Positions 18,409 to 64,000 of a stretch of 64,000 nucleotides of DNA are shown here, piece after piece (position 1 is the first letter of the stretch; each line of letters opens with the position of its first letter). Origin of the DNA: Eubacteriales bacterium (GTDB taxonomy: Bacteria; Bacillota; Clostridia; Lachnospirales; Lachnospiraceae); contig JAUNJF010000001.1 in assembly GCA_030533405.1 (NCBI GenBank), positions 62,001-126,000 of the forward strand, given 5' to 3'. The translations under genes and the position numbers were made by a program. The notes beneath the pieces were generated by a model, which did no database searches, had not been told where the DNA came from, and was given only the letters and a program-made list of their open reading frames with translations.

Positions 18409-18420
18409 TATAAGAAGAAA

Positions 18421-18457
18421 AGGAGGCTATCGCGTCTTAAGCGATGGCTTCTTTTTT
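18421..18457 (+). terminator. Terminator of valS
   Basis: A GAGGCTATCGC / GCGATGGCTTC stem (two G-T pairs) with a 7-nt loop and a following T run. Confidence 0.8.
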
Positions 18458-18568
18458 ATGTCTGTGGCTGGCAGGTTCTCTTCCTTCCTGCTAATTTTCT
18501 TTTTTTGTAACGAAGTGCTGAGGATAGTTGTTACACCTTCAGAAGAGATTATATCGGAGGTAGGGAAG

Positions 18569-50825: not shown

Positions 50826-50879
50826 GCAGGGTAACCTGCTAGTACATGTCGCAAGGATGCGACATTATATTCAAGGAGG
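50826..50879 (+). promoter_or_regulatory. Flagellin 1 leader: candidate CsrA sites
   Basis: Hairpin GCAGG-GTAA-CCTGC (50826-50839) is followed by a perfect 8-bp hairpin at 50846-50865 whose loop is AGGA (CGCAAGGATGCG). CsrA prefers exactly such a hairpin-loop GGA, and CAAGGATG matches its consensus core. A second GGA lies in the Shine-Dalgarno AAGGAGG (about 50873-50879). Two sites, one over the ribosome site, is the arrangement in the B. subtilis hag leader. Confidence 0.75.
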
Positions 50880-50887
50880 AATTTATT

Positions 50888-51700
50888 ATGGTAGTACAAC
50901 ACAACATGAAAGCGGTAAACACAAACAGAATGTTAGGACAGAACGTTAAGGCTGTTTCTAAGTCAGCAGAGAAGTTATCTTCTGGTTACAAAGTTAACCG
51001 TGCAGCAGATGACGCAGCTGGTCTTTCTATTTCTGAAAAGATGAGAAATCAGGTTCGTGGTTTGAACCAGGCTGTTAAGAACTCAGAGGATGGTATTTCT
51101 TTGATTCAGACAGCTGAAGGTAACATGAATGAGATTCACTCTATCCTTCAGAGAATGGGTGAGTTAGCTGTTAAGTCTCGTAATGATGTTAACGCTACAG
51201 AAGATCGTGCTACAATTCAGGATGAGGTTGCTCAGTTAAAAGAAGAGATCACATCTATCACAAACAAGGCAGAGTTCAATGGAACAAAGCTTTTAAGTGG
51301 TGGTCTTCAGGGCAAGATGCTTCAGGTTGGTGCTAATGTAGGTGAGACAATGTCTGTATCAATCAGTGGTACATCACTTACTACATTAGGAGTTAATACA
51401 ACTTCTGTTGGAACAGCAGCTGCAGCATCAGCAGCAATCAGCCAGATTCAGACAGCTATTAAGTCTGTATCTAGTCAGAGATCTAAGCTTGGTGCTATTC
51501 AGAATCGTCTTGAGTACACAATCAATAACTTGGAGAACTACTCTGAGAACTTAACATCTGCTGAGTCTAATATCAGAGATACTGATATGGCTACAGAGAT
51601 GGTTGGTTACAGCAAGAATAACATTCTTCAGCAGGCCGCTCAGTCAATGCTTGCACAAGCTAACCAGTCTAACCAGGGTGTATTATCATTACTTCAGTAA
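50888..51700 (+). CDS. hag: Flagellin 1
   Basis: 270 residues from ATG 50888 (AAGGAGG upstream); an upstream in-frame ATG at 50846 lies inside the leader hairpin and is rejected. Conserved D0-D1: VVQHNMKAVNTNRMLGQNVK, GYKVNRAADDAAGLSISEKM, MNEIHSILQRMGELAVKSRN. The C-terminus has ENLTSAESNIRDTDMATEM, then SMLAQANQSNQGVLSLLQ. The middle is very short, so D2/D3 are essentially absent. It has codon use of a highly expressed gene. Maf and the Pse genes downstream suggest it is O-glycosylated on Ser/Thr of the exposed middle region. Sigma-28 plus a probable sigma-A promoter. Confidence 0.96.
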   Translation: MVVQHNMKAVNTNRMLGQNVKAVSKSAEKLSSGYKVNRAADDAAGLSISEKMRNQVRGLNQAVKNSEDGISLIQTAEGNMNEIHSILQRMGELAVKSRNDVNATEDRATIQDEVAQLKEEITSITNKAEFNGTKLLSGGLQGKMLQVGANVGETMSVSISGTSLTTLGVNTTSVGTAAAASAAISQIQTAIKSVSSQRSKLGAIQNRLEYTINNLENYSENLTSAESNIRDTDMATEMVGYSKNNILQQAAQSMLAQANQSNQGVLSLLQ

Positions 51701-51718
51701 TTTTATTACCGAGGTAGG

Positions 51719-51925: not shown

Positions 51926-52750
51926 ATGATAATACAACATAACATGAAAGCAGTAAACACAAACAGAATGTTAGGACAGAATGTTAAGGCAGTTGGTAAA
52001 TCAGCAGAGAAGTTAGCATCTGGTTACAAAGTAAATAGAGCAGCAGATGACGCTGCAGGACTTTCTATTTCTGAAAAGATGAGAAATCAGATTCGTGGTT
52101 TGAATCAGTCCGTAAAGAACTCAGAGGATGGTATTTCTTTGATTCAGACAGCAGAAGGTAATATGAATGAGATTCATTCAATCTTACAGAGAATGGGAGA
52201 ATTAGCAGTTAAGTCAAGAAATGATGTCAATGCGACAGAAGATCGTTCAACCATTCAGGATGAGATTACACAGTTAAAACAAGAGATTACATCGATTACA
52301 AATAAAGCAGAATTCAATGGAACAAAGTTATTAGATGGTTCGATGTCAACAGGTAAGGCTAAGATTTTACAGGTTGGTGCGAATGCAGGAGAGACCATGT
52401 CAGTATCCATTAGTGGTACATCACTTACAACATTAGGTATTGATACAACATCTGTTGGAACTGGTGCGGCAGCATCTGCAGCAATCAGTGAAATTCAGGG
52501 AGCAATCAAATCTGTATCGGCACAGCGTTCTAAGCTTGGTGCGATTCAGAACCGTTTGGAATATACAATTAACAACTTAGAGAACTATTCAGAAAACTTA
52601 ACATCAGCTGAGTCAAGTATCCGTGATACAGATATGGCTACTGAGATGGTAAGCTATAGTAAGAATAATATCTTACAGCAGGCTGCTCAGTCAATGCTTG
52701 CACAGGCAAACCAGTCTACACAGGGTGTTATGAGTTTATTACAGGGTTAA
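51926..52750 (+). CDS. Flagellin 2
   Basis: 274 residues, a close paralog of flagellin 1: IIQHNMKAVNTNRMLGQNVK, GYKVNRAADDAAGLSISEKM, and the C-terminal SSIRDTDMATEMVSYSKNNI with SMLAQANQSTQGVMSLLQG. It differs mainly in the short variable middle, which is four residues longer (DGSMSTGKAKIL), and in synonymous codons, which here are less biased than in copy 1. D2/D3 are absent. It has its own sigma-28 promoter, leader and terminator. Presumably also in the filament, and a Maf target. Confidence 0.95.
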   Translation: MIIQHNMKAVNTNRMLGQNVKAVGKSAEKLASGYKVNRAADDAAGLSISEKMRNQIRGLNQSVKNSEDGISLIQTAEGNMNEIHSILQRMGELAVKSRNDVNATEDRSTIQDEITQLKQEITSITNKAEFNGTKLLDGSMSTGKAKILQVGANAGETMSVSISGTSLTTLGIDTTSVGTGAAASAAISEIQGAIKSVSAQRSKLGAIQNRLEYTINNLENYSENLTSAESSIRDTDMATEMVSYSKNNILQQAAQSMLAQANQSTQGVMSLLQG

Positions 52751-52764
52751 TAAGGATTAAGTCG

Positions 52765-52796
52765 AAAAGGCTGACCAGTATCGGTCAGCCTTTTCT
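52765..52796 (+). terminator. Terminator of flagellin 2
   Basis: AAAAGGCTGACC (52765-52776), 6-nt loop, exact complement GGTCAGCCTTTT (52783-52794). Confidence 0.93.
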
Positions 52797-52896: not shown

Positions 52897-53151
52897 ATGC
52901 AGATATTAATGGATGAAGTGGAAAAATTATTAGAACTGTTATATCAGGAAAATGAAGAGCAGTCTTATAATCAGTTGGTTGCGATTATTCCGCAGTTGGA
53001 ACAAGAGATACAAAAAATGACGGATGCAGAATTACAGCAACAGACTATGCAGGGACTATTATTGGTAATGCAGGCGATGGAGGCAGGCGATTTGACATTG
53101 CTTGCAGATTATTTAAAATATGAAGTAATCGAGCGAATACTGGGGGCGTAG
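52897..53151 (+). CDS. Small acidic helical protein before maf, function unknown
   Basis: 84 residues; GGGAGG lies upstream of ATG 52897. The sequence is helical and rich in Gln, Glu and Leu (VEKLLELLYQENEEQ, QLVAIIPQLEQEIQKM, LLLVMQAMEAGDLTLLADYL). There are no Cys residues or recognisable motif. It is 3 bp upstream of the Maf glycosyltransferase and almost certainly cotranscribed. The end (GDLTLLADYLKYEVIERI) resembles the tail of small helical proteins found in flagellar loci. A chaperone- or partner-like role for Maf or flagellin is possible but unsupported. I do not recognise a named family. Confidence 0.7.
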   Translation: MQILMDEVEKLLELLYQENEEQSYNQLVAIIPQLEQEIQKMTDAELQQQTMQGLLLVMQAMEAGDLTLLADYLKYEVIERILGA

Positions 53152-53154
53152 AGA

Positions 53155-55020
53155 ATGAGCATACGAGAGAAGAATTTAGCATGTATTGAGAAAAAGAATA
53201 AGAATCTGTATGACGCTATTATAAAGTATGATGAAAAGGCTGAAAAAAATAATAGCGTTGTTAGTGTGCAGCAGAGTATGGATGGAAGCGATATTCTCTG
53301 TGTGGAAGAGGATGGGATGCTCACTCCGTTAAATAGTATCTATGACCCAGTAGAAGAGGCCAATTATTATGTTAGAAAGTATGAGAAGCTACCTTCTCAT
53401 GCGATTATGATCTTTTTTGGTTTGGGAAATGGTGTGCATGCGAGAGCGGTAATGAATATGTCGCAAAAGGATATTGCTGCATTCTTTTATGAGCCGTCTG
53501 TTGATATTTTCTTAAAAACTATTGAACATTTTGACATTACAGATCTTTTGGAAGATGAGCGGACAGAGATTTTTGTAGGATCTCTAAATGGAAGTGAATT
53601 AGAGTTATATTTAGAAGCGAATTTGACGCATGAGAATGTGGCGATTTCTTATATCGAAAGCTTGCCAAAGTATAAAAAGTTGTTTGGAAAAGAATATGTG
53701 GAACTATTCCATATTTATCAGGATCGAGCACGAATTATGCAGATGGATATTAATACCCGATTGAAGGTAAAAGAGGAATTTATGGTCAACCCGCTTAAAA
53801 ATCTGGAATATACCTTTCATTGTAAAAGTGCGTGGGATTACAAAAAGGTATTTACAGAAGATATGCCAGCGATTTTGGTTGCGGCAGGACCATCGCTTGA
53901 GAAAAACGTGGAACAGCTGAAAAAAGCAAAGGGAAAGGCATTTATTTTAGCGGTGGATACGGCAGCACTGTATCTGTTAAATAGGGGCATAGAGCCCGAC
54001 ATGGTAGCGGCAATTGATTATTTAAAACCGCTTCGATTGTTTGATGACGACAGATTAAAGGATATTCCATTGGTAATGCTTACGGATTTTAACCATAAGG
54101 TAATGGAGCGATTGGATGGAAATGATTTTGTGTTTGGAAGTTCAAGTCTAGGATTATACCGAAATTATTTTCAAAATATGGGAAATAAAATAGAAGGACT
54201 ACCACAGGGTGGTTCGGTCGCAACGTATGGTTTTGCGCTTCTTCAGTATTGGGGATTTAAAAAGGTTATGTTGGTAGGTCAGGATCTGGCACATACAGGA
54301 GACAAACAGCATGCAGGAGAGGCTGAAATCAAACGTGAAGAGATTAAGCGTGAAATCATTGAGTTAGAGGGAAATGTTGAGGAGAAAGTATATACAACAT
54401 TGGATTATTATGCTTATCTTCGCTGGTTTGAAATGGCAATTGCACATTATTATCCAAATAGTGAAGTGATTAATGCAACAGAAGGTGGAGCGAAAATCAG
54501 GGGCACACAAATCATGACATTAAAAGAGGCAATGGATTTGTATTGTGAAAAAGAATATGATTTTGGTAAATTGTGTAAAAGTGTTCCATTTGTTGTAGAT
54601 GAAGATCATTATCAGGAAGCATATGCTTATCTAAATAATCAGAAAAATGAGATAAAGAAATTGAAACGTACTTTGAAAAGTGCAATGCATAATGCAGAGC
54701 GTGCACAGGTTTTGGTTGAGCGTGGGGAAACATTTGGAAAAGAATTTAAGAAGTTAAACAAAGACCTGACAAAAGCGTGTAAAGAATATGAGGAAACGGA
54801 TACGGCACAGTTGGTTTCTGCATTGTGTGCAGATGTTGAGATTGCATCTGTGGTTGATCTTTATATTGAAAAGGATGATCAGATTGAAGAAATGAAGCGT
54901 CTATATGAAAAGTTACATGGTAATTATAAAAGTTATTATAACCATGTGGATGATATTGTGAATGTTTTTGAGGAAGTGTTGGAGAACATCGCAACACGGT
55001 ATCAGATGGACAAAGAATAA
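53155..55020 (+). CDS. maf: Motility-associated factor (Maf) flagellin glycosyltransferase
   Basis: 621 residues. The central DUF115/MAF_flag10 domain (about 220-420) shows PAILVAAGPSLEKNVEQLKK, FILAVDTAALYLLNRGIEPD and KVMLVGQDLAHTGDKQHAGE. The N-terminal part holds VFFGLGNGVHARAV-type Rossmann motifs (here MIFFGLGNGVHARAVM). Maf proteins attach nonulosonic acids (pseudaminic or legionaminic acid) to Ser/Thr of flagellin before export. The next genes make the CMP-activated sugar, so a Pse-like donor is expected. It heads the glycosylation island and probably acts in the cytoplasm. Confidence 0.93.
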   Translation: MSIREKNLACIEKKNKNLYDAIIKYDEKAEKNNSVVSVQQSMDGSDILCVEEDGMLTPLNSIYDPVEEANYYVRKYEKLPSHAIMIFFGLGNGVHARAVMNMSQKDIAAFFYEPSVDIFLKTIEHFDITDLLEDERTEIFVGSLNGSELELYLEANLTHENVAISYIESLPKYKKLFGKEYVELFHIYQDRARIMQMDINTRLKVKEEFMVNPLKNLEYTFHCKSAWDYKKVFTEDMPAILVAAGPSLEKNVEQLKKAKGKAFILAVDTAALYLLNRGIEPDMVAAIDYLKPLRLFDDDRLKDIPLVMLTDFNHKVMERLDGNDFVFGSSSLGLYRNYFQNMGNKIEGLPQGGSVATYGFALLQYWGFKKVMLVGQDLAHTGDKQHAGEAEIKREEIKREIIELEGNVEEKVYTTLDYYAYLRWFEMAIAHYYPNSEVINATEGGAKIRGTQIMTLKEAMDLYCEKEYDFGKLCKSVPFVVDEDHYQEAYAYLNNQKNEIKKLKRTLKSAMHNAERAQVLVERGETFGKEFKKLNKDLTKACKEYEETDTAQLVSALCADVEIASVVDLYIEKDDQIEEMKRLYEKLHGNYKSYYNHVDDIVNVFEEVLENIATRYQMDKE

Positions 55021-55073
55021 AAATATATTTTATGCAATTTATGAAAGGCAACAAAAGCAAGGAGGCGAATGAT

Positions 55074-55763
55074 ATGGCAACAAAAAAAATTGCAATTATA
55101 ACAGCAAGAGGTGGAAGCAAGAGAATTCCTAAGAAGAATATTAAGGACTTTTGTGGCAAGCCAATTATTGCATATTCGATTGAGGCAGCATTAGAATCTA
55201 AGTTGTTTGATGAGGTTATGGTGTCAACAGATAGTGAAGAGATTGCAGAGATTGCAAGAACGTATGGAGCTAATGTGCCATTTATGAGAAGCGAGGCGAC
55301 GGCAAATGATTTTGCAACAACCAATGATGTGCTTGTGGAAGTTTTTACAGAATATAAGAAGCGAGGACAAAACTTTGATCAAGCGGTTTGCATTTACCCA
55401 ACAGCACCATTTGTGACGGCTAAAAAATTGCAGGATGCATTTGAGGTAATGGAGGCAGAGGGTGCAGAAGCATTGACGCCAGTTGTAAGATTTTCATTTC
55501 CACCACAGAGAGGTTTTTTGGTAAAAGATGGTTCGTTAGCATATCAATTTCCTGAATATGCGACAACTCGTTCTCAGGATTTGGAGCCGATTTATCACGA
55601 CTGTGGACAGTTTTATTTAATGACAGTGGATAATGTGTTAAATGGGAAACCGGCGAATAAATGTGTTCCGTTGATTGTATCGGAGTTAGAGGTGCAGGAT
55701 ATCGATAATGAAGAAGATTGGAAGTTGGCGGAGATCAAATATCAGATGATGAATAAGAGATAA
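55074..55763 (+). CDS. pseF: CMP-pseudaminic acid synthetase (PseF-like)
   Basis: 229 residues from ATG 55074 (AAGGAGGCG upstream). It is of the CMP-NeuAc synthetase family: nucleotide loop IITARGGSKRIPKKNIKDFC, then MVSTDSEEIAEIARTYGA. The region TPVVRFSFPPQRGF with its SFPPQR-type motif is characteristic of PseF rather than NeuA or LegF. It activates pseudaminic acid with CTP. It is paired with pseI (76 bp downstream) and Maf (upstream), the normal PseF partners. The exact sugar made here may be a derivative. Confidence 0.88.
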   Translation: MATKKIAIITARGGSKRIPKKNIKDFCGKPIIAYSIEAALESKLFDEVMVSTDSEEIAEIARTYGANVPFMRSEATANDFATTNDVLVEVFTEYKKRGQNFDQAVCIYPTAPFVTAKKLQDAFEVMEAEGAEALTPVVRFSFPPQRGFLVKDGSLAYQFPEYATTRSQDLEPIYHDCGQFYLMTVDNVLNGKPANKCVPLIVSELEVQDIDNEEDWKLAEIKYQMMNKR

Positions 55764-55839
55764 GGATTTAGGTGATTACGAAAGCAATTTAGGGTTTTGT
55801 AAGCATCTAAAAAGGATTATACAAAAGGAGATTGGGAGA

Positions 55840-56892
55840 ATGAATAAAGAAATCTTTATCGATGGAAAACGTATTGCAGCAGATAGTCCAACTTATATTA
55901 TTGCAGAGATGTCGGGAAATCATTTGATGAGTTTTGAACGTGCCAAGGATATCATTTATCAATTGAAGGATTCTGGTGTGGATGCGGTGAAGCTACAGAC
56001 CTATACGGCTGATACGATTACAATTAATAGTGATAATCCTGAATTCCAGATTCATGGGGGACTATGGGATGGAGAGACGTTATATAGTTTGTATCAGAAG
56101 GCATATACGCCATGGGAATGGCAGGAAGACTTGGTGAAATATGCAAAGGAACTTGGCATGAGTTGTTTTTCTTCCCCATTTGATTTGACTGCGGTTGATT
56201 TTATGGATGAGATTGGAATGCCTGCTTATAAGGTTGCATCTTATGAGATTAACGACATTCCAATGATTCGCAAGATTGCGAAGAAGGGAAAACCTATCAT
56301 CATTTCTACTGGGACGGCGCATATGGAGGATGTAGAGAGAGCATTTCGTGTGTGTAAGGAAGAAGGAAATGAGGATGTTATTTTATTAAAATGTACATCG
56401 GCATATCCTTGTCCGTATGAAGATATGAATATCAAAGCGATTCCTTTGATGGAAAAAACATATGGTTGTTTGTGTGGTTTGTCGGATCATAGTTTCGGTA
56501 GTGAGGTGGCACTTGGTGCGGTGGCGCTTGGTGCAAAAGTAATAGAGAAACACGTAACCATTAAGCGTGCAGATGGTGGACCAGACGGTGGTTTTTCGAT
56601 GGAGATGGAAGAATTCATTGATATGGTACGTCAGATTCGTAATTTAGAGAAAGCCCTTGGCAGAGAAACACTTGAATTGACAACTTTACAAGAGGGCGCA
56701 AGAGGTGGCTGCAGATCTTTGTATGTTTCCAAGGAGATCAAGAAGGGAGAAGTCTTTACAGAGGATAATATCAAGTCGGTTCGTCCAGCATTAGGACTTC
56801 ATACAATGTACTACGAGGAGGTTCTTGGTAAGACGGCAACAGCAGATTTGCCGTTTGCAAAACCACTTTCTTTTGGGGATGTGATGTGGTAA
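55840..56892 (+). CDS. pseI: Pseudaminic acid synthase (PseI/NeuB family)
   Basis: 350 residues. NeuB TIM-barrel motifs: IAEMSGNHLMSFERAKDIIY, DAVKLQTYTADTIT, ISTGTAHMEDVE, GLSDHSFGSEVALGAVALGA. ADGGPDGGFSMEMEEFIDM is the PseI-type C-terminal region. A SAF/antifreeze domain closes the protein (about 285-345, GCRSLYVSKEIKKGEVFTED). It condenses PEP with a 2,4-diacetamido-trideoxy hexose. The preceding-step genes pseB, pseC and pseG are not in the window. AAAGGAGATTGGGAG is the ribosome site. Confidence 0.92.
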   Translation: MNKEIFIDGKRIAADSPTYIIAEMSGNHLMSFERAKDIIYQLKDSGVDAVKLQTYTADTITINSDNPEFQIHGGLWDGETLYSLYQKAYTPWEWQEDLVKYAKELGMSCFSSPFDLTAVDFMDEIGMPAYKVASYEINDIPMIRKIAKKGKPIIISTGTAHMEDVERAFRVCKEEGNEDVILLKCTSAYPCPYEDMNIKAIPLMEKTYGCLCGLSDHSFGSEVALGAVALGAKVIEKHVTIKRADGGPDGGFSMEMEEFIDMVRQIRNLEKALGRETLELTTLQEGARGGCRSLYVSKEIKKGEVFTEDNIKSVRPALGLHTMYYEEVLGKTATADLPFAKPLSFGDVMW

Positions 56893-56893
56893 A

Positions 56894-57364
56894 ATGAAAG
56901 AGATATGTTTGCGTAAAGCAACCCTGCAGGATGCAGAGCAATTGCATATTTGGAGAAATGATCCAGATGTCCGAAAATGGTCTTTTCATACAGGGGAAAT
57001 ATCCTTAGAGGAACATATGAAATGGTTTCTGATGTCATTGGAACGAGATGATGTTGAGATTTTCATTTTAGAAGAAAATGGACAAGCGGTTGGACAGATT
57101 CGATTGACCTATTGGTATGATGAGTTAGTAATCGGATATAGTATTGACCGAGCATGTCGTGGACGACATTTAGGACAGCGTCTTGTAGAGTTAATGGAAG
57201 TGACATTGCAGCGGGACGACGAGCTTCGAAAGGATGGAGAGTATTTTGTCGCATATGTACAAAAGGATAATATTGTGTCTAGAAGGGTGTTTCAGGTATT
57301 AGGGTATGCGGAAGAGGAACAACGAAAGTGGATTAAATATGTGAAGAAGATGGTGGGCGGATAA
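56894..57364 (+). CDS. GNAT acyltransferase, PseG-tail/PseH-like
   Basis: 156 residues, 1 bp after the pseI stop. GNAT fold: LRKATLQDAEQLHIWRNDPD, SFHTGEISLEEHMKWFL, then GQIRLTYWYDELVIGYSIDR and the acetyl-CoA loop ACRGRHLGQRLVEL. The same domain type occurs as the C-terminal half of PseG-GNAT fusions, where the hydrolase part is separate. Here no PseG half is present. It probably acetylates an amino group of a nucleotide-linked or free nonulosonic-acid precursor, or modifies it with a different acyl group. It is one of two GNATs side by side. Confidence 0.8.
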   Translation: MKEICLRKATLQDAEQLHIWRNDPDVRKWSFHTGEISLEEHMKWFLMSLERDDVEIFILEENGQAVGQIRLTYWYDELVIGYSIDRACRGRHLGQRLVELMEVTLQRDDELRKDGEYFVAYVQKDNIVSRRVFQVLGYAEEEQRKWIKYVKKMVGG

Positions 57365-57368
57365 TAAT

Positions 57369-57959
57369 ATGAGCAGTAATAAAAAGAAGTTTAAAGCTGT
57401 TTCGTTGAAATATTTAGATGATGATACGATTGCAAATATTCGTATTTGGCGAAATCAGGATTTCGTTAAAACTAAAATGTATTCTCAACATGAAATTAGT
57501 GAAGAAGAACACAAAAATTATATAAAAAGTATTAAAGAAAATCCCAACAGAGGGTTATTTGTTTTTTATTTAGATGATCAACCGTTTGGTGTATATCAGT
57601 ACACCATTACTCCAGAAGACAATTCTGTGACTGGTGGGAATTATTTGGTTGATGAAGAATATGTTTATATGGGATATGGTATGATACAAATTTATTTCAT
57701 GGGAGTGATTAAATTTGATGTTTTAAAATGCGACCGTGAATATGAAGAAACACTCGATACAAACACTCGCATTTTAACATTAGCAAAAAAAATGGGAGGA
57801 AAGCCGAAATTGATTCCCGAAAAAAGATGTTTGCTTGAAGATGGTTATCACGATGTTTACAAGATAGAGGGATTTGCATCGGACTGGGAAAAGAATAAAA
57901 CAAATTATGAAAATGTAGTTTTTAAAGTTGTTGAAAAACAATTTGAAATAATATTATAA
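57369..57959 (+). CDS. pseH: PseH-like UDP-amino-sugar N-acetyltransferase
   Basis: 196 residues, beginning 5 bp after the previous gene. It contains the PseH signature WRNQDFVKTKMYSQHEISEEEH near residue 26-47, shared with the N-terminus of pseudaminic-acid acetyltransferases. The acetyl-CoA-binding region (YLVDEEYVYMGYGMIQIYFM) is less canonical than usual. PseH puts the acetyl group on UDP-4-amino-4,6-dideoxy-AltNAc. From this gene onward, A+T content is clearly higher and Lys/Ile codons favour AAA/ATA, hinting that the following block was acquired separately. Confidence 0.8.
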   Translation: MSSNKKKFKAVSLKYLDDDTIANIRIWRNQDFVKTKMYSQHEISEEEHKNYIKSIKENPNRGLFVFYLDDQPFGVYQYTITPEDNSVTGGNYLVDEEYVYMGYGMIQIYFMGVIKFDVLKCDREYEETLDTNTRILTLAKKMGGKPKLIPEKRCLLEDGYHDVYKIEGFASDWEKNKTNYENVVFKVVEKQFEIIL

Positions 57960-57979
57960 ATGAAAGCGAGGATAAAAAA

Positions 57980-58201
57980 ATGACAGAACAAGAAAAATTA
58001 GAAAAAATTGCGGAGATTTTAGATTTAGAGGTTGAAGAAGTAGATATTGAGGCTGACTTGGAGAGCCTTGAGGAATGGGATTCAGTTGCTATCTTATCAT
58101 TTATTGCCATGATGGATGAAGAGTTCGAAAAAGAAGTAAAGGGTTCCGAAATCAGACAGATGAAAACGGTGAAAGATTTATTTGGATTGATGGTAAAATG
58201 A
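57980..58201 (+). CDS. Stand-alone acyl carrier protein
   Basis: 73 residues, strongly acidic four-helix ACP. The phosphopantetheine Ser35 is in EEWDSVAILSFI, matching the DS[LVI] motif. Start ATG 57980; the stop overlaps the next ribosome region (1 bp gap to the SDR gene). It is not next to fabH/fabD housekeeping genes but inside the glycosylation island, so it is a dedicated carrier. It should hold the acyl chain made by the two KASIII-like enzymes, or an acid loaded by the adenylating ligase at 62706. Confidence 0.92.
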   Translation: MTEQEKLEKIAEILDLEVEEVDIEADLESLEEWDSVAILSFIAMMDEEFEKEVKGSEIRQMKTVKDLFGLMVK

Positions 58202-58202
58202 T

Positions 58203-58916
58203 ATGAGCAAGACAATTCTAATTACAGGTGCGACATCTGGAATCGGAGAATCTACATCGGAATATTTGTCGAAACAAGGATATGAAACAGTTCTTGTGGG
58301 AAGAAATGAAGAAAAATTAAATGATCTTAAACAAAAGCTAAAGGGCGTAAAGGTAATTTATAAAATTGATCTTACTGAGATTAATCAAATTGAAACAATG
58401 TTTATGTCATTAAAGGATAATGGTATCGTCTTTGATGGGTTGGTATATTGTGCAGGTATAGGTATGGATAGAACGGTTCGCATGTGTGAAACAATTCATT
58501 TAGAAAAACTTATGATGATTCATTATTATTCTTTTGTTGAAGTTTGTAGATTGTTTTCTCAGAAAAAGTATTCGAATAATGGTGCGAGCATTGTAACAAT
58601 GTCGAGTATCTCACCTGTTGTTTCGAAAAAAGGTTCTCTACCATATTCAAGTGCAAAGGCAGCAATGGATAATGCTGTAAATGTAATGGCAAAAGAATTT
58701 ATAAAAAGAAAGATTCGTGTAAATGCTATTCAACCTGCATTAGTAAATACACCATTGACGCAAAATGCAGAAGGAGTACTTGACATCGAGAGTATACAAC
58801 CATTGGGTTATATTGAACCAGAATATATATCGTTTTTAGTTGAATTTTTATTATCAGACAAGTCGAAATATATGACGGGAAATCATATTCCTATCACAGC
58901 AGGAATGGAACTATAG
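58203..58916 (+). CDS. SDR reductase, FabG-like, copy 1
   Basis: 237 residues. Classical SDR: ITGATSGIGES (Rossmann Gly motif, residues 6-16), catalytic Ser in MSSISPVVSKKGSLP, and YSSAK (Tyr-x-x-x-Lys). The closest well-known type is 3-oxoacyl-ACP reductase FabG, but sugar-modifying SDRs look alike. Being sandwiched between an ACP and a KASIII-like enzyme, reduction of a 3-oxoacyl-ACP is the most natural role. It starts 1 bp after the ACP stop, indicating translational coupling. Confidence 0.85.
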   Translation: MSKTILITGATSGIGESTSEYLSKQGYETVLVGRNEEKLNDLKQKLKGVKVIYKIDLTEINQIETMFMSLKDNGIVFDGLVYCAGIGMDRTVRMCETIHLEKLMMIHYYSFVEVCRLFSQKKYSNNGASIVTMSSISPVVSKKGSLPYSSAKAAMDNAVNVMAKEFIKRKIRVNAIQPALVNTPLTQNAEGVLDIESIQPLGYIEPEYISFLVEFLLSDKSKYMTGNHIPITAGMEL

Positions 58917-58925
58917 GAGGAAGAA

Positions 58926-59981
58926 ATGAAAGCGCAAGTTTTTGACAATGTAAAAGTTGCTGGTATCGCGTGTGCAGTTCCCAATAACAAAAAATATTCA
59001 GATGATTATATTGACTATTATGGAAAAGAAGGCGTTGAGAGATTCAAGAAGGCAACAGGAATTGTATCTAGATATATGTCTAATGGAAAGCAAACAGCCT
59101 CTGATTTGTGTTATGTTGCTGCAGATGAATTGATGAAATCAAAAGGTCTTACAGGCGAAGATATTGATGCGTTAATATTTGTTACACAAACAGCAGATTA
59201 TTGTATTCCTTCAACAGCGTTTGTTTTGCAAAAACGTTTAAATATAAAAACAGATTGCATAGTATTTGATATGAATATTGGTTGTTCAGGATTTGTGAAT
59301 GGAATTTATATTTTGGCAGGTATGATTCAAAGTGGTATGCTTCAACGAGCATTACTTCTTGTTGGAGATGCAGCTGTTGAACGACCTGTAACAGAAGATA
59401 AATCTTTTTCTATGATGTTTGGTGACGCAGGCTCTGCTTGTATATTGGAGCGTGGAGAAGGTCTTATAAGGGGAATGATTCGTTCAGATGGTAATGGATA
59501 TGATACATTGATTACACCATTTCCAGGAGCAAGATTTCCGATAACAGAAGAGAATTTGATACGATTTGAACATCCACAAAAAATGGATGGAGATGATACG
59601 TTTCTATTTACTATAACAAAGGTTCCCAAATTGTTTAAAGAATTTTATAAGCACTTTGAATGTTCCTTTGAGGATTTTGATTATTGTATGCTACATCAGG
59701 CGAACTTAATGATAATCAACCAGATTACAAAGAAGCTTAAAATGCCTGTTGAAAAGGTTCCAGTTTCTATAGAAAACTATGGAAATACGGATGGAGCATC
59801 TATTCCCGTTGGAATTGTAGATTTGTGTGAATCTATTAATGAGGACAAAAAATTGAAGTTAATAACGTCAGGATTTGGTATAGGTTTATCCTGGGGTGTG
59901 GTTTCGTTTGATATAGATACAAAAGATGTTCTACCAATGATTTTTACTGATGATTATTACGAAGAGGGATATAATGTATGA
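58926..59981 (+). CDS. KASIII-like 3-oxoacyl-ACP synthase, copy 1
   Basis: 351 residues, FabH family. Catalytic triad intact: Cys120 (NIGCSGF), His257 (MLHQANLMI) and Asn287 in ENYGNTDGASIPV. Like FabH, it should condense an acyl-CoA (or acyl-ACP) with malonyl-ACP to a 3-oxoacyl-ACP. The local ACP and flanking SDRs give the carrier and the reducing step. It overlaps the following SDR start (ATG 59978) by 4 bp. Housekeeping FabH is not expected inside a flagellin-glycan locus, so a special substrate is likely. Confidence 0.88.
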   Translation: MKAQVFDNVKVAGIACAVPNNKKYSDDYIDYYGKEGVERFKKATGIVSRYMSNGKQTASDLCYVAADELMKSKGLTGEDIDALIFVTQTADYCIPSTAFVLQKRLNIKTDCIVFDMNIGCSGFVNGIYILAGMIQSGMLQRALLLVGDAAVERPVTEDKSFSMMFGDAGSACILERGEGLIRGMIRSDGNGYDTLITPFPGARFPITEENLIRFEHPQKMDGDDTFLFTITKVPKLFKEFYKHFECSFEDFDYCMLHQANLMIINQITKKLKMPVEKVPVSIENYGNTDGASIPVGIVDLCESINEDKKLKLITSGFGIGLSWGVVSFDIDTKDVLPMIFTDDYYEEGYNV

Positions 59982-60733
59982 AAAATCCGTATGATTTTAC
60001 TGGTAAAAAATATATTGTTACGGGTGCTTCTTCTGGAATGGGAAGAAGCACAGCAATTCGACTAGCAGAGCAGGGTGCACAAGTAGTGTTAATGAGTCGT
60101 AGTAAGGATAAGCTTAACGAAACGCTATCTATGATGAATGGTGATAGGCATCAGGTGATAGTAGTTGATTTGGCTGACGTGGAAGATATGACTAGTATAT
60201 TTAACGATATTGTTGCAGATGGTAAAAAGTTAGATGGTATTGTTCATTGTGCAGGGATTTCAAAGGTACTACCTGTTAGCATGTTATCTCGCAAAGTAAT
60301 GGAAGAAACAATGAATCTTAATCTGTATTCGTTAATAGAGATGACTAGATTGTTTTCGAAAAAAAAATATCATGTGAATGGTTCTATTGTTGCGGTATCT
60401 TCTATTGTTGTTGATATGCCATCTAAATGTCAGACAATATATGCTGCAAGTAAAGCCGCTTTGAATGTTGCAATTAAAACGATGGCGATGGAATTAGCTG
60501 ATAAAAATATTCGTATTAATTGCGTGATGCCCGCTTCAACTGCTACACCGATGATGGAGCTTGCAAAAGCAGAAATGTCAGAGGATTTATTCAGAAGAAA
60601 AATGGAAACACAAGTACTTGGTGTGACAGAACCTGAGGATATTGCAAATGCAATACTTTTCTTGTTGAGTGATGCATCAAAATCAATGACAGGACGTGCA
60701 TTATATACCGATGGTGGTTATTTGGGAATATAA
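59978..60733 (+). CDS. SDR reductase, FabG-like, copy 2
   Basis: 251 residues. VTGASSGMGRST nucleotide motif, catalytic AVSSIVV, and YAASK; C-terminal DASKSMTGRALYTDGGYLG is the typical SDR end. It is moderately similar to the copy at 58203 in motif order but clearly divergent. Start overlaps the KASIII stop by 4 bp, so the two are tightly coupled: a synthase/reductase pair. A second SDR could have different stereochemistry or act on the sugar itself. Function inferred from context only. Confidence 0.85.
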   Translation: MKNPYDFTGKKYIVTGASSGMGRSTAIRLAEQGAQVVLMSRSKDKLNETLSMMNGDRHQVIVVDLADVEDMTSIFNDIVADGKKLDGIVHCAGISKVLPVSMLSRKVMEETMNLNLYSLIEMTRLFSKKKYHVNGSIVAVSSIVVDMPSKCQTIYAASKAALNVAIKTMAMELADKNIRINCVMPASTATPMMELAKAEMSEDLFRRKMETQVLGVTEPEDIANAILFLLSDASKSMTGRALYTDGGYLGI

Positions 60734-60747
60734 GGGAGTCGATAGGT

Positions 60748-61602
60748 ATGGAAATACTTTTTTTTGATAAGGATGACAGAGGATATACAAGAGATGATAT
60801 TTATAATGTTTTGAAGCTAATAGGGGCAGATGACTGCGAAACGCTATTCATTCATTCTGATGTAATGTTTGGGCGACCTGGTCCAAAATTCAACAGAAAA
60901 GAGTATCTGTCTATTTTATATGAAATCTTATGTTCGTTGAATGTTAAAAATATAATTGCGCCAACATTTTCATATAGTTTCTGTAATGGTGAGGACTATG
61001 ATGTGTTAAAAAGTAAAACATCTATGGGAGCTTTTAACGAGTATATTCGAAAACAAGAAAATCGTTATAGAACAATGGATCCATTGTTGTCGTTATCCGT
61101 TCCACAAACCTTGCGTAAACAATTCGAAAATGTAAGTGGACATTCTCTTGGTGAGGGAAGTGGACTAGACATATTACATGGGTTGGATGGCGTTAAATTT
61201 TTGTTTTTTGGTGCAAGATTAGGAGAATGTTTTACTTATTTGCATTATGTAGAAAAAATGCTGGATGTACCATACCGATTTGATTTGGATTTTGAGGGTA
61301 ATATCATTGATGAAAGCGAAAAAAAATCTAGGAGAAAACAGACAATACATACGGGATGTTATGGTGTTAAAATAGGAGAATGTCATTATTTTGAAGATTA
61401 TTTGTACGATAATGGTTATTTGAAGAGAGCGCGATTGGGTGATGGAAGTGTTGCATGTATATCTGAGAGAAATGCGTTTGATCAAATACGATATCGGTTA
61501 GAAAATGACATAAATTATTTTCTTGAACAACCATTTTCTGAAAAAGATCTTGTTCATAAATATACAATGGGATTAGACGGTAGTAGAATCACACATTGTT
61601 AA
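60748..61602 (+). CDS. AAC(3)-fold N-acyltransferase
   Basis: 284 residues. Family pattern of aminoglycoside 3-N-acetyltransferases: LFIHSDVMFG, APTFSYSFCNGEDYD, TSMGAFNEYIRKQ, RTMDPLLSLSVP, HSLGEGSGLDILH, and the late LHYVEKMLDVPYR. Such proteins are also found in polysaccharide and glycan loci, where they add acyl groups to amino sugars. The cluster context makes antibiotic resistance unlikely. Its natural donor here could be the acyl-ACP made next to it rather than acetyl-CoA; this is inference. Position between two KASIII genes supports the link. Confidence 0.85.
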   Translation: MEILFFDKDDRGYTRDDIYNVLKLIGADDCETLFIHSDVMFGRPGPKFNRKEYLSILYEILCSLNVKNIIAPTFSYSFCNGEDYDVLKSKTSMGAFNEYIRKQENRYRTMDPLLSLSVPQTLRKQFENVSGHSLGEGSGLDILHGLDGVKFLFFGARLGECFTYLHYVEKMLDVPYRFDLDFEGNIIDESEKKSRRKQTIHTGCYGVKIGECHYFEDYLYDNGYLKRARLGDGSVACISERNAFDQIRYRLENDINYFLEQPFSEKDLVHKYTMGLDGSRITHC

Positions 61603-61619
61603 TATAGTTGGGGAAAAAG

Positions 61620-62690
61620 ATGAAAATAAAATTTAGTGAAAAAAAAATAACAGGAATACTGGGTGTTTTGCCAGAAAAAGAAAGCATGTTTGACGATGAG
61701 GTTGGAAATTATTCTTTTCCAGAACGTCAGACAATGCGACTAAAAAAAGTTATGGGTTTTGAAAAACACAGACTGTCAAAAGAAGAAAGCACGGCATCTG
61801 ATTTTTGTATATATGGTATGAGTTATTTGCTTGAAGGGAAAAAAATAAGAAAAGAAGAAATAGGTGCAATAATAGTTGTGACTCTTTCTCCCGATTATTT
61901 TGTTCCGCATATTAGTAATATTATTCATGGACACTTTCAATTAAATGAAGATGTTCTATGCATGGATATATCGCAGGGATGTTGCGGGTATTTATTAGGA
62001 TTAATGCAGTCTTTTATGTTATTGGATTATATGAAAGACAAAAAAATTGTGCTATTTAATGTGGATATCTTAAGTAAAAAGGTTTCAAAGCACGATCGGA
62101 ATGATTTTCCTTTGGTTGGTGATGCTGCAAGTATTACAATAGTTGAGAATGATGTAGCGGAAAAAGACATTGATTTTCGTATTTTCACAAATGGGAAAGA
62201 CAGAGATGCATTGATTATTCCGGCCGGTGGGTTTGCAATGCCATCAAATTTAGAAACCTCTGTTATGAAAAAGACAGATGATGGTAATGAAAGATGTTTA
62301 GATAATTTACATATGGATGGTGCAGAGGTGTTTAGCTTTGTTCAGACGAAGGTGCCACCAATGATTGATGAGACGTTTAAAGAACTTAATATACAGAAAG
62401 ATGATATAGATTATTATTTGTTTCATCAACCGAATAAGTTTATGTTAAAAAAGCTCGCGGATAAAATTGGGGTTCCACACGAAAAACTATTTATGAATGT
62501 AGTAGAAAACTATGGAAATCCAAGCGGGGTATCAATACCAATTAATATTATTCACAATTTAGGAAAAGAAATGACAGAGAAAAAAAGCAAGTGTTGTTTG
62601 TCTGCATTTGGATCTGGTTTGACTTGGGGAATGATGCTTTTGGAATTAGGTCATTTGGACTTTTGTGAAATGATAGAATCCGATTTGTAG
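61620..62690 (+). CDS. KASIII-like 3-oxoacyl-ACP synthase, copy 2
   Basis: 356 residues from ATG 61620. Family residues: Cys121 (DISQGCCGYLLG), His269 (YLFHQPNKFML) and Asn300 (ENYGNPSGVSIP), so it appears active. It is more divergent than copy 1, especially at the N-terminus (KITGILGVLPEKESMFDDEV). Relatives of this sort catalyse condensation or acyl transfer with unusual substrates. It begins 17 bp after the AAC(3)-like gene and is followed by an adenylating ligase after 15 bp. Two KASIII genes in one small cluster suggest two condensations or two different reactions. Confidence 0.85.
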   Translation: MKIKFSEKKITGILGVLPEKESMFDDEVGNYSFPERQTMRLKKVMGFEKHRLSKEESTASDFCIYGMSYLLEGKKIRKEEIGAIIVVTLSPDYFVPHISNIIHGHFQLNEDVLCMDISQGCCGYLLGLMQSFMLLDYMKDKKIVLFNVDILSKKVSKHDRNDFPLVGDAASITIVENDVAEKDIDFRIFTNGKDRDALIIPAGGFAMPSNLETSVMKKTDDGNERCLDNLHMDGAEVFSFVQTKVPPMIDETFKELNIQKDDIDYYLFHQPNKFMLKKLADKIGVPHEKLFMNVVENYGNPSGVSIPINIIHNLGKEMTEKKSKCCLSAFGSGLTWGMMLLELGHLDFCEMIESDL

Positions 62691-62705
62691 GAGGAGGAAT
62701 GGAGA

Positions 62706-64000
62706 TTGCGTAATAATTTGGCAAAATTGTTTGAAAATACGGTTAATAAATATGCTGATAAAATTTGTGTAGTTGATAAGGATGAACAATTGACGTTTTC
62801 TGTATTGAGAGAAAGAGGACGTAGAATTGCAACATATATTTTACAAACAAAATATGGAGAAAAAAACAAACCTATTGCGGTTTTTTTGCCAAAATGCAAA
62901 GAAGTATATGAAATTAATATCGCATGTATATATAGTGGTAATATTTTCATGAATTTAGATGTAAAAACCCCAATGGCAAGAATTCATAACATTATTGATT
63001 TAATTCAGCCAGGATTAATTGTTACCAATCATCAGTATATAGATATAATTCAAAATGAGAACGTTGGAGTAGATGTTGTTTGTATCGAGGAACTTTTGAA
63101 CACAGAGTTGTATCCAGATGATACATTACTAATGAAACGTCAAAAAGAAATGATTGATACGGATCCGTTATGTATAATTAATACATCTGGTTCTACGGGA
63201 ACACCAAAAGGTGTTGTGTTAAATCATAGAAGTTTTTTTGATTTTTTGGATTGGTCAGTTGAAACATTTGGATTTGATGGAAGCGAAAAAATTGGTGCGC
63301 TATCTCCAGTCGTGTTCGATATATATGACTATGAATTCTGTTTAATGATTGCAAAGGGATCTACGATTGTTTTATTAGATAATGGATTGGCAATGTTTCC
63401 AGCTAAATTATTGACTTATATGCAGGAACAAGAGATTAATTTTATTTTTTGGGTTCCGTCAATTATGGTAAATATTGCAAATATGGACTTATTGTCAAAA
63501 ATATCGTTAAATAGTTTAAGAACTGTTTGGTTTGCAGGAGAAGTATTTCCAACTAAACAATTTAATTATTGGAAGAAACAACTTCCTCAAACAGTGTTTG
63601 CAAATTTGTATGGACCAATAGAAATCACACTAGATTGTACATATTATATTGTGGATCGAGAATTTGATGACAGTGAACCGCTTCCAATTGGATATGCCTG
63701 TGAAAATACAGATGTTTTACTACTAAATGAGGATGATGAATTATGTAAGGATGGAGAGATTGGTGAGATATGTGTCAGAGGAACATCTCTTGCGATGGGA
63801 TATTATAACAATCCCCAAAAAACAGATCAAGCTTTTGTTCAAAATCCACTTAATAAATCGTATCCAGAGTTGATTTATCGAACGGGAGATCTAGCATTTG
63901 TTAATGGGCGAAAAGAAATTGTTTTCAAAGGAAGAAAAGATAGTTTAATAAAACACATGGGATATAGAATAGAATTAGGAGAAATAGAACACGTTTTGAT
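62706..64000 (+). CDS. Acyl/aminoacyl-adenylating ligase (3' end beyond window)
   Basis: About 431 residues visible from TTG 62706, which is placed 8 nt after AGGAGG; the ATG at 62699 in another frame stops after four codons. ANL-superfamily motifs: A3 SGSTGTPKGVVLNH (161 onward), a DltA/NRPS-like segment VVFDIYDYEF, A5 NLYGPIEIT (Thr of the usual GPTE replaced by Ile), A7 YRTGDLA, and A8 GRKDSLIKHMGYRIELGEIE. It should activate a carboxylic or amino acid with ATP and load it on a carrier, most likely the ACP at 57980. The spacing and DltA-like A4 favour a small acid or amino acid. Substrate unknown. Confidence 0.85.
   Translation, partial: MRNNLAKLFENTVNKYADKICVVDKDEQLTFSVLRERGRRIATYILQTKYGEKNKPIAVFLPKCKEVYEINIACIYSGNIFMNLDVKTPMARIHNIIDLIQPGLIVTNHQYIDIIQNENVGVDVVCIEELLNTELYPDDTLLMKRQKEMIDTDPLCIINTSGSTGTPKGVVLNHRSFFDFLDWSVETFGFDGSEKIGALSPVVFDIYDYEFCLMIAKGSTIVLLDNGLAMFPAKLLTYMQEQEINFIFWVPSIMVNIANMDLLSKISLNSLRTVWFAGEVFPTKQFNYWKKQLPQTVFANLYGPIEITLDCTYYIVDREFDDSEPLPIGYACENTDVLLLNEDDELCKDGEIGEICVRGTSLAMGYYNNPQKTDQAFVQNPLNKSYPELIYRTGDLAFVNGRKEIVFKGRKDSLIKHMGYRIELGEIEHVL

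What the first reader, a model, noticed from the sequence alone, without database searches (positions are those of the whole stretch)
52897..64000. Flagellin-glycan island with a dedicated acyl-carrier pathway
Seen: Maf, PseF and PseI, two GNATs, then ACP, two SDRs, two KASIII-like enzymes, an AAC(3)-fold acyltransferase and an adenylating ligase, all on one strand with short gaps or overlaps. Known: Pse glycans on flagellin normally need only acetyl-CoA-dependent acylation; 3-hydroxybutyryl-type modifications of flagellin sugars are known in a few bacteria, with ACP/KAS genes in one Pseudomonas locus. Inferred: this set builds a custom acyl group on the ACP and the AAC(3)-like enzyme transfers it to the nonulosonic acid. 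Such a complete combination in a Firmicute flagellin locus looks undescribed to me.
Basis: partly seen in the sequence, partly recalled or inferred. Interest (0 to 1): 0.85.

Follow-up and report, generated by a model that had tools for sequence, protein, structure and literature searches.

The report
Acyl-building cassette in flagellin-sugar locus
In a Lachnospiraceae bacterium, the genes that sugar-coat the flagellum include a small carrier-protein assembly line that probably builds a custom acyl group, likely starting from an amino acid, to decorate that sugar; related cassettes occur in surface-sugar loci of many unrelated bacteria.

Summary
The island runs 11.3 kb past the window end, to PseG, PseB, a second Maf, a glycosyltransferase and PseC, with a second carrier, a third carrier-like protein, a second ligase, a third SDR and a third GNAT.

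The acyl block lies inside a pseudaminic-acid flagellin locus: all genes point one way, the largest gap is 169 bp, and the scan put no terminator-like site in any gap.

The combination is not unique: a Campylobacterota Pse-type locus carries the same gene kinds. Of 80 relatives of the second KASIII, 6 lie near NeuA/NeuB-family genes; 52 of the other 74 loci hold some other sugar or glycan gene.

The new part is the "adenylating ligase". It is an amino-acid-type adenylation enzyme (Asp235 in 78 of 78 readable sequences) that travels with its own carrier, a GNAT and the second KASIII. Where the GNAT is missing a formyltransferase is often present (11 of 17 loci, versus 9 of 63). This suggests an amino acid is loaded, its amine capped, then extended, reduced and moved to the sugar. 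Product, order and acceptor position are untested. New variant of a known kind.

The parts
50846..51700 (+). flagellin 1
   Evidence: PF00669 3.4e-44, PF00700 5.5e-28; terminator-like site after it at 51717
51926..52750 (+). flagellin 2
   Evidence: PF00669 3.3e-43, PF00700 9.9e-28; 89% identical relative in L064; terminator-like site at 52769
52897..53151 (+). small 84-aa protein of unknown function
   Evidence: no Pfam or NCBIfam match; 36% relative in the same place in L064
53155..55020 (+). Maf-type flagellin nonulosonate transferase (Maf1)
   Evidence: PF01973 1.9e-33; function recalled
55032..55763 (+). PseF, CMP-pseudaminic acid synthetase
   Evidence: TIGR03584 288 bits, cut-off 205.7
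55840..56892 (+). PseI, pseudaminic acid synthase
   Evidence: TIGR03586 463.5 bits, cut-off 340.25
56894..57364 (+). GNATa, GNAT-family N-acyltransferase, PseH-like
   Evidence: PF13302 6.7e-15; TIGR03585 46 bits, below cut-off 93.1
57369..57959 (+). GNATb, PseH-like N-acyltransferase; relatives lie beside ACP1-KAS1 in L063 and L137 and near KAS1 in L064
   Evidence: TIGR03585 68 bits, below cut-off; neighbourhoods
57980..58201 (+). ACP1, acyl carrier protein
   Evidence: PF00550 7.4e-07; carrier Ser in 98 of 98 aligned rows, own included
58203..58916 (+). SDR1, ketoreductase-like
   Evidence: PF13561/PF00106; YSSAK motif
58926..59981 (+). KAS1, KASIII-like condensing enzyme
   Evidence: PF08541/PF08545; Cys120-His257-Asn287; group apart from FabH-type sequences (quick tree)
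59978..60733 (+). SDR2, ketoreductase-like
   Evidence: PF13561 5e-53; YAASK motif
60748..61602 (+). AAC(3)-fold N-acyltransferase, candidate final transferase
   Evidence: PF02522 6.8e-18; family profile matches FrbF 2.8e-11 and AAC(3) structures; His166 in 29 of 29 and Glu169 in 28 of 29 rows, own included
61608..62690 (+). KAS2, KASIII-like enzyme of a cross-phylum group tied to the carrier ACP2
   Evidence: Cys125-His273-Asn304 in 82 of 82 rows, own included; ACP2-type carrier next upstream in 64 of 80 relatives
62706..64000 (+). LIG1, amino-acid-type adenylating ligase; cut by the window end, complete to window-equivalent 64238
   Evidence: PF00501 4e-58; TIGR01733 300.5 bits, below its cut-off 317.4; Asp at A-domain position 235 in 78 of 78 readable rows, own included, one further row gapped

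Best explanation
This is one long flagellin-glycan gene run of a Lachnospiraceae bacterium. Shown by sequence: a near-complete pseudaminic acid pathway (PseB, C, G, I, F over their cut-offs, PseH candidates below), two Maf proteins and, between the Pse genes, an acyl-assembly cassette with two carrier proteins and a third carrier-like one. Inferred mechanism: LIG1 activates an amino acid and loads it on carrier ACP2. GNATc caps the amino group (a formyltransferase seems to do this in sister loci). KAS2 condenses the capped aminoacyl group with malonyl carried on ACP1, and an SDR reduces the beta-keto group. KAS1 with the other SDR adds a second condensation and reduction, or builds the acyl cap. 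The AAC(3)-fold enzyme, or the PseH-like GNATb, moves the finished group to an amino group of pseudaminic acid or its UDP-sugar precursor. The CMP-sugar is then put on flagellin by Maf. The chemical identity of the group, the order of steps and the acceptor position are not shown.
For: Location: all genes co-directional from Maf1 to PseC, gaps -32 to 169 bp; the coding-strand terminator-like sites between 52897 and PseC fall inside genes, while sites follow both flagellins. Conservation in flagellin/Pse-type loci: L063, L064, L137 and Campylobacterota L183 (PseG-PseI-MBL, GNATc-LIG1 reversed, ACP1-KAS1-SDR-SDR-AAC3-ACP2-GNATc-KAS2, then PseH-type, PseF, PseC, PseB reversed; cassette proteins 33-46% identical to ours except the second GNATc, 26%). 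Core: near 80 KAS2 relatives, same strand, ACP2 in 77, LIG1 in 73, ACP1 in 65, SDR in 63, GNATc in 63; LIG1, GNATc and ACP2 all with KAS2 in 57 of 80. Amino acid: Asp235 in 78 of 78 readable and Lys517 in 79 of 79 LIG1 rows; solved relatives are NRPS adenylation domains and DltA. Capping: 11 of 17 loci without GNATc hold a formyltransferase versus 9 of 63 with it (Fisher 9e-05; full flanks 7 of 10 versus 5 of 41, p 6e-04); on the KAS2 tree about 5.8 independent pairs go that way and 0.2 the other (median sign p 0.031); in L181 LIG1 is fused to a formyltransferase, next to ACP2 and AAC3. Condensation: carboxyltransferase near 7 and FabD-like transferase near 4 of 80; loci with two or more KAS have 2.35 SDRs on average, loci with one have 1.03 (full-flank loci, n 20 and 31).
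Against: No expression, product or glycan data. All 80 loci were found with KAS2 as bait. None of the six loci with NeuA/NeuB-type genes among the 80 holds AAC3, so the AAC3-to-Pse link rests on our locus and on Campylobacterota. The cassette is not tied to flagellin: 6 of 80 with NeuA/NeuB-type genes, 4 of 80 with flagellin or Maf within about 10 kb. The SDR/KAS link weakens under the tree control (median p 0.07), and the exchange of AAC3 with hexapeptide acyltransferases is not significant there (median p 0.22), nor at 9 kb without it (p 0.25-0.29). Six loci have neither GNATc nor a formyltransferase and nine have both; formyltransferases can also act on sugars. No gene passes the PseH cut-off. 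That KAS2 uses malonyl-ACP1 is assumed.
Confidence: 0.55

Rival explanations
1. Two separate acyl groups. KAS1, KAS2, ACP1 and the SDRs build a plain hydroxyacyl chain (3-hydroxybutyryl or 3,5-dihydroxyhexanoyl), while LIG1, ACP2, GNATc and AAC3 separately attach an N-acylated amino acid.
For: F. psychrophilum O-polysaccharide carries 3,5-dihydroxyhexanoyl, with two KAS genes, an ACP and a reductase proposed to make it (PMC6519341, passages). P. syringae vioR and vioB mutants lose the 3-hydroxybutyryl-viosamine from flagellin (PMC3927599, passages). Campylobacterota stretch L179 has LIG1-GNATc-ACP2-AAC3 with no KAS labelled in its 20 kb. C. jejuni flagellin Pse can carry N-acetylglutamine (PMC3068675, passages).
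Against: KAS2 is next downstream of an ACP2-type carrier in 64 of 80 loci and near LIG1 in 73 of 80, which ties the condensing enzyme to the amino-acid carrier; but these loci were found with KAS2 as bait.
Confidence: 0.25
2. KAS2 does not condense but cyclises: an acetoacetyl group placed on the amino acid by GNATc is closed by an aldol step to a pyroglutamate-type (5-oxoprolyl) group, which is moved to the sugar.
For: Such hydroxy-methyl-5-oxoprolyl groups occur on bacterial amino sugars, and ketosynthase-fold enzymes can close gamma-lactams (both recalled, no call). It would explain carrier-bound amino acid, N-acyltransferase and KASIII in one line.
Against: Full Cys-His-Asn triad in 82 of 82 rows, as in condensing enzymes; a formyl cap, as in the sister loci, leaves no ketone to close on. 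The 12 papers listed held no such term, which is no test of absence.
Confidence: 0.08
3. The block makes an unrelated small molecule (a lipid, signal or antibiotic-like compound) and only happens to sit in the flagellin island.
For: AMP ligases, ACPs, KASIIIs and an MBL hydrolase also occur in metabolite clusters; 74 of 80 KAS2 relatives have no NeuA/NeuB-type gene in the locus held and 22 of 80, many of them short, have none of the sugar or glycan markers I tested.
Against: 58 of 80 loci hold at least one sugar or glycan marker (aminotransferase, sugar transferase, GT2, Pse-type gene, hexapeptide acyltransferase); in L063, L064, L137 and L183 the cassette is interleaved with Pse-type genes; family scans of the genes from Maf1 to PseC showed no exporter.
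Confidence: 0.1
4. The AAC(3)-fold protein is an aminoglycoside resistance enzyme.
For: PF02522 family and AAC(3) structures match.
Against: 23.6 bits against the curated AAC(3) cut-off of 270; of 28 AAC3-type hits in the 80 loci, 27 times one lies directly after an SDR.
Confidence: 0.02

Closest known systems
Viosamine island of Pseudomonas syringae (vioA, vioB, vioR, vioS, vioT, vioM, acp), with low-identity homologues in P. aeruginosa PAK (PMC3927599, passages)
   Same: Flagellin glycan; KASIII (VioS), reductase (VioR), ACP and acyltransferase (VioB) for a 3-hydroxybutyryl amino sugar; vioR and vioB mutants lose it, VioS and ACP assigned by homology
   Different: Sugar is viosamine, not a nonulosonic acid; one KASIII; none of the seven genes is an adenylating ligase, second carrier or AAC(3)-fold enzyme
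C. jejuni flagellin glycosylation locus (PMC3068675, passages; acpP2, fabH2 and Cj1307/1308 recalled)
   Same: Pse on flagellin with non-acetyl groups (di-O-methylglyceroyl, N-acetylglutamine). Four unnamed Campylobacterota loci with PseB-PseC-about 430 aa-AAC3 order (L176, L177, L178, L180) hold AAC3-like, carrier and KASIII genes, and two of the four LIG1
   Different: L178 has a DUF4910 protein in the Cj1295 position, a methyltransferase and a HAD-type protein; the KASIIIs of the four fall outside the KAS1 and KAS2 groups (quick tree, weak branches)
Flavobacterium psychrophilum O-polysaccharide R1 group (wfpC-G; PMC6519341, passages)
   Same: Two KAS, ACP and reductase predicted to build 3,5-dihydroxyhexanoyl on an amino sugar
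   Different: O-antigen, PglD-like transferase, no amino-acid ligase named in the passages I read
Aeromonas group II and enterobacterial flagellin glycosylation islands (PMC7874193, PMC4875605, passages)
   Same: ACP, 3-oxoacyl-ACP reductase and AMP-dependent synthetase in flagellin islands; the ACP3-SDR3-LIG2 run here has the same order of gene kinds if ACP3 is a carrier
   Different: LuxC/LuxE there, no such family match among our genes; homology of ACP3/SDR3/LIG2 to those genes was not tested
DltA/DltC and NRPS adenylation-carrier pairs
   Same: Amino-acid-type adenylation enzyme plus carrier; N-formylation of a carrier-bound amino acid is known in linear gramicidin synthase (recalled), one of the solved relatives of LIG1 (318 bits summed over its two adenylation domains; single-domain GrsA 205 bits)
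   Different: Free-standing genes in a sugar locus; well below the DltA and DltC cut-offs

Membership tests
Pseudaminic acid pathway | PseB, PseC, PseG, PseI, PseF over curated cut-offs | tested here: met
   533.8/407.75, 503/423.5, 190.5/153.55, 463.5/340.25, 288/205.7 bits
Pseudaminic acid pathway | PseH N-acetyltransferase over cut-off | tested here: not met
   best 68.3 bits against 93.1, genome-wide; GNATb is the best candidate
Housekeeping FabH (KASIII) | FabH curated score and group | tested here: not met
   KAS1 181.9 and KAS2 147.9 bits against 292.1; grouped apart from 11 FabH-type sequences including the genome's own (quick tree; those 11 were taken as FabH-type by weak KAS2 similarity, not by a cut-off)
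KASIII superfamily | Cys-His-Asn catalytic triad | tested here: met
   KAS2 82 of 82; KAS1 39 of 40 at each site
AAC(3) aminoglycoside acetyltransferase | Curated resistance-enzyme score | tested here: not met
   23.6 bits against 270
Antibiotic_NAT fold family (PF02522) | Family score and conserved His/Glu | tested here: met
   65.5 bits against 25; His166 29 of 29, Glu169 28 of 29
Amino acid adenylation enzymes | Asp at position 235 and Lys at 517 (numbering recalled from GrsA) | tested here: met
   78 of 78 readable (one row gapped) and 79 of 79 rows, own included; substrate not identified
Amino acid adenylation enzymes | Curated TIGR01733 score | tested here: not met
   300.5 bits against 317.4, just below
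DltA / DltC (D-alanylation) | Curated equivalog scores | tested here: not met
   LIG1 250.1/559.85; ACP2 30.8/68
ACP-dependent flagellin sugar acylation (P. syringae type) | ACP, KASIII, reductase and acyltransferase genes in a flagellin glycan locus | tested here: met
ACP-dependent flagellin sugar acylation (P. syringae type) | Acyl group on the flagellin glycan, lost in mutants | not testable with these tools
   needs mass spectrometry of wild type and mutants

The most novel reading that the evidence does not exclude
A portable sugar-decorating assembly line (KAS2 relatives under record titles of nine phyla, the KAS2-ACP2-LIG1-GNATc quartet in seven of them), in the papers I could search not described as a unit. 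It loads an amino acid on a carrier, caps its amine (acyl or formyl), extends it with a dedicated KASIII and malonyl units, reduces it, and hands the amino-acid/polyketide hybrid to an exchangeable transferase (AAC(3)-fold, hexapeptide or PseH-like). It would put statine-like acyl groups on surface sugars, flagellin pseudaminic acid being one client. The shorter form without KAS (LIG1, cap enzyme, ACP2, AAC3) would explain N-acylaminoacyl groups such as the N-acetylglutamine of Campylobacter flagellin.
Probability: 0.35. Interest if true: 0.8.

Novelty: new variant of a known kind. Interest (0 to 1): 0.58.

Why it matters
If right, flagellar and other surface sugars of many bacteria carry acyl groups made by a small NRPS/polyketide-like line rather than by simple acetyl-CoA transfer. 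The gene content (ligase pocket, cap enzyme, number of KAS and SDR genes, transferase) could then be read to predict the group. It gives a testable candidate route to unexplained Pse substituents, and a way to look for new surface-glycan acyl groups.

Tried and rejected
Considered and dropped: aminoglycoside resistance for the AAC(3)-fold protein (score far below cut-off); a flagellin-only function for the cassette (6 of 80 loci with NeuA/NeuB-type genes, 4 of 80 with flagellin or Maf); a Firmicute-only or unique combination (L183); reading the ligase substrate from its pocket (several pocket codes, ours DIYFWALLDK, none that I could assign with confidence). The exchange of AAC3 with hexapeptide acyltransferases looked strong within 5 kb (1 of 26 versus 16 of 54, p 0.008) but fails at 9 kb and under the tree control. 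LIG1's top solved match, linear gramicidin synthase, leads only because two of its domains are summed; per domain GrsA scores higher, so I do not use it as evidence for formylation.

Rows and choices: the genome-contig scan found 110 relatives and kept 80; 29 of the 80 have under 6 kb on at least one side, so full-flank counts (51 loci) are given where made; the hexapeptide test also used a 5 kb limit (56 loci); the tree-control test used all 80. In the Campylobacterota search 19 of 199 genomes had an AAC3-like match and I fetched stretches of 10 of these 19. In one search gene labels come from a simple ORF caller that places some false antisense ORFs over small ACP genes; counts use six-frame profile searches instead. 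The KAS tree is a quick one of 55 rows (subsamples of the KAS1 and KAS2 hits) with three long rows. PHROGs gave nothing for ACP1. Paper searches covered openly licensed PMC papers only.

Full report
What was checked. The gene list of the finding is right. The window is G000:C74:62001-126000 and cuts the island; the rest is on L002 (C74:125500-145000; add 63499 for window-equivalent coordinates). In order: flagellin 1, flagellin 2 (both by Pfam), an 84-aa protein, Maf1, PseF, PseI, GNATa, GNATb, ACP1, SDR1, KAS1, SDR2, AAC3, KAS2, LIG1, ACP2, GNATc, ACP3, SDR3, LIG2, MBL hydrolase, an Rpn-like ORF (label by my reading; Pfam gave only a sub-threshold match), PseG, PseB, Maf2 (PF01973 6.8e-43), a glycosyltransferase, PseC (end 75333). 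ACP3 has no family match and is called carrier-like by its motif only. Gaps from the 84-aa gene to PseC are -32 to 169 bp. Terminator-like sites follow each flagellin (51717, 52769). Later coding-strand sites, up to PseC, fall inside genes; their number is near what shuffles give, so this is absence of a clear stop, not proof of one transcript.

The Pse part. PseB, C, G, I and F pass their curated cut-offs. No PseH does, in the whole genome. GNATb (68 bits) is the best candidate, and its relatives lie beside ACP1-KAS1 in L063 and L137 and near KAS1 in L064. In the 299 Lachnospiraceae genomes sampled, PseI passes its cut-off in 67, and close KAS2 relatives (over 400 bits) occur in 6. Two genomes have both: the window's own and G188 of the same genus. 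So this is a rare variant of a common locus type.

The cassette elsewhere. A scan of one genome per species with the KAS2 alignment found 110 relatives; 80 were kept. Their record titles fall in nine named phyla, one without a label; some titles may be wrong (see L063). Near these 80, on the same strand: ACP2-type 77, LIG1-type 73, ACP1-type 65, SDR 63, GNATc 63, MBL 32, AAC3 26, KAS1 26, carboxyltransferase 7, FabD-like 4. LIG1, GNATc and ACP2 are all present with KAS2 in 57 of 80, spread over seven named phyla. NeuA/NeuB-type genes occur in 6 of 80 and flagellin or Maf in 4 of 80. At least one sugar or glycan marker, hexapeptide acyltransferases included, occurs in 58 of 80, and in 52 of the 74 outside the six NeuA/NeuB-type loci; 22 of 80 have none of the markers tested, many of them short. 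In Chryseobacterium (L136) the order is LIG1-GNATc-ACP2-KAS2-ACP1-SDR-SDR-MBL-hexapeptide acyltransferase-aminotransferase, with sugar transferases on both sides: a surface-glycan setting with a PglD-like transferase.

Same gene kinds in a Pse-type locus of another phylum. In unnamed Campylobacterota, L183 holds PseB (58%), PseC (43%), PseF (45%), a PseI-type (34%) and a PseG-type (26%) gene around ACP1 (43%), KAS1 (41%), two SDRs, AAC3 (43%), ACP2 (six-frame profile, 126 bits), two GNATc, KAS2 (40%), LIG1 (46%) and MBL (36%). L176, L177, L178 and L180 share the PseB-PseC-about 430 aa-AAC3 order of the C. jejuni flagellin locus (Cj1293-1297 from PMC3068675; the rest recalled), with carrier and KASIII genes and, in two of the four, LIG1. 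Of the 10 Campylobacterota stretches fetched, L179, L182 and L185 show no Pse-type gene. A quick tree puts KAS1, KAS2 and FabH-type sequences apart, with one KAS1 and one KAS2 each in L183 and L184; three rows are long, one KAS1 row (L070) strays and many branches are weak.

Why an amino acid. LIG1 is an A-domain-type enzyme: TIGR01733 300.5 bits, just under its cut-off of 317.4; its solved relatives are NRPS adenylation domains and DltA. The Asp that binds the amino group in known A domains (recalled) is present in 78 of 78 readable rows, ours included. Pocket codes differ between loci, so the amino acid probably differs. GNATc has no Pfam match of its own but its family is GNAT by profile (Acetyltransf_1 in 31 of 36 members, PDB GNATs at 1e-10). 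In loci that lack it a formyltransferase is often present, in several between LIG1 and ACP2 or right after KAS2: 11 of 17 versus 9 of 63 (Fisher 9e-05), full flanks 7 of 10 versus 5 of 41 (p 6e-04). On independent pairs the median sign p is 0.031. In L181 the formyltransferase is fused to LIG1, beside ACP2 and AAC3. Both proteins act on amines; the simplest shared substrate is the carrier-bound amino acid. Some formyltransferases may instead act on sugars.

Why condensation. Both KASIIIs keep the triad. Some loci add a carboxyltransferase and a FabD-like transferase, i.e. perhaps their own malonyl supply. Loci with two or more KAS genes have more SDRs (mean 2.35, n 20, versus 1.03, n 31, full flanks). 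With the tree control the direction holds in about 5.6 pairs against 0.4 (median p 0.07). So roughly one reductase per condensation is a fair but unproven reading.

Final transfer. AAC3 belongs to PF02522 and matches FrbF and AAC(3) structures, with His166 and Glu169 conserved. It alternates with hexapeptide acyltransferases within 5 kb but not robustly. In L179 and L181 it lies beside ACP2 and LIG1 with no KAS labelled. Against it: none of the six NeuA/NeuB-type loci among the 80 has AAC3. In the sampled Lachnospiraceae, at least 5 of the 16 genomes with an AAC3-like match have it within 5 kb of a PseI/NeuB-family match (G000, G013, G283, G049, G176; searches compared by eye, the second list being truncated).

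Known precedents (passages read, not whole papers). P. syringae flagellin viosamine with 3-hydroxybutyryl, lost in vioR and vioB mutants (PMC3927599). C. jejuni Pse with di-O-methylglyceroyl depending on Cj1295, and with N-acetylglutamine (PMC3068675). F. psychrophilum 3,5-dihydroxyhexanoyl with two KAS genes (PMC6519341). ACP, reductase and ligase genes in Aeromonas and enterobacterial flagellin islands (PMC7874193, PMC4875605). In PMC3765264 a predicted 3-oxoacyl-ACP reductase in a Shewanella flagellin-modification cluster. The main texts of the Geobacillus and Clostridium flagellin-island papers gave no hits for acyl carrier, ketoacyl, oxoacyl or acyltransferase, and those of PMC13130089 and PMC3283744 no hit for acyl carrier.

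Verdict. A dedicated carrier-based acyl decoration of the flagellin Pse is the best reading. It is a variant of a known kind, and the amino-acid-primed, amine-capped, KASIII-extended form is the part that looks new and testable.

Noticed in passing
L063 (JAMPFJ010000011.1) and L050 (G188:C2): A contig of 75,369 bases is titled Bacteroidales in the record behind L063, yet a contig of the same length with the same genes is given as same genus as the window's genome: probably a mislabelled assembly.
   Followed up: partly
L052:8503-10140, 17362-19860 and L053:2390-3334: A polysaccharide locus (EpsG, Polysacc_synt_2) with the cassette plus its own acetyl-CoA carboxyltransferase, a LuxE-LuxC fusion and a FabD-like acyltransferase: perhaps a nearly complete private acyl pathway.
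   Followed up: partly
L181:7045-9261: LIG1-type adenylating enzyme fused to a formyltransferase domain, beside ACP2 and AAC3 in a Campylobacterota genome.
   Followed up: yes
L058:5176-6789: A KASIII-like protein with about 200 extra C-terminal residues and no second Pfam domain.
   Followed up: no
window 11430-15278 (- strand): 1283-aa protein that joins a periplasmic sugar-binding-type domain with GGDEF and EAL domains.
   Followed up: no
L002:1759-4081: ACP3-SDR3-LIG2: a second ligase run with the same order of gene kinds as orf1-orf3 of Aeromonas group II flagellin islands, if ACP3 is a carrier; SDR3 or LIG2 relatives also lie near KAS2 in L109, L111, L112 and L118 (Selenomonadaceae by title).
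   Followed up: partly
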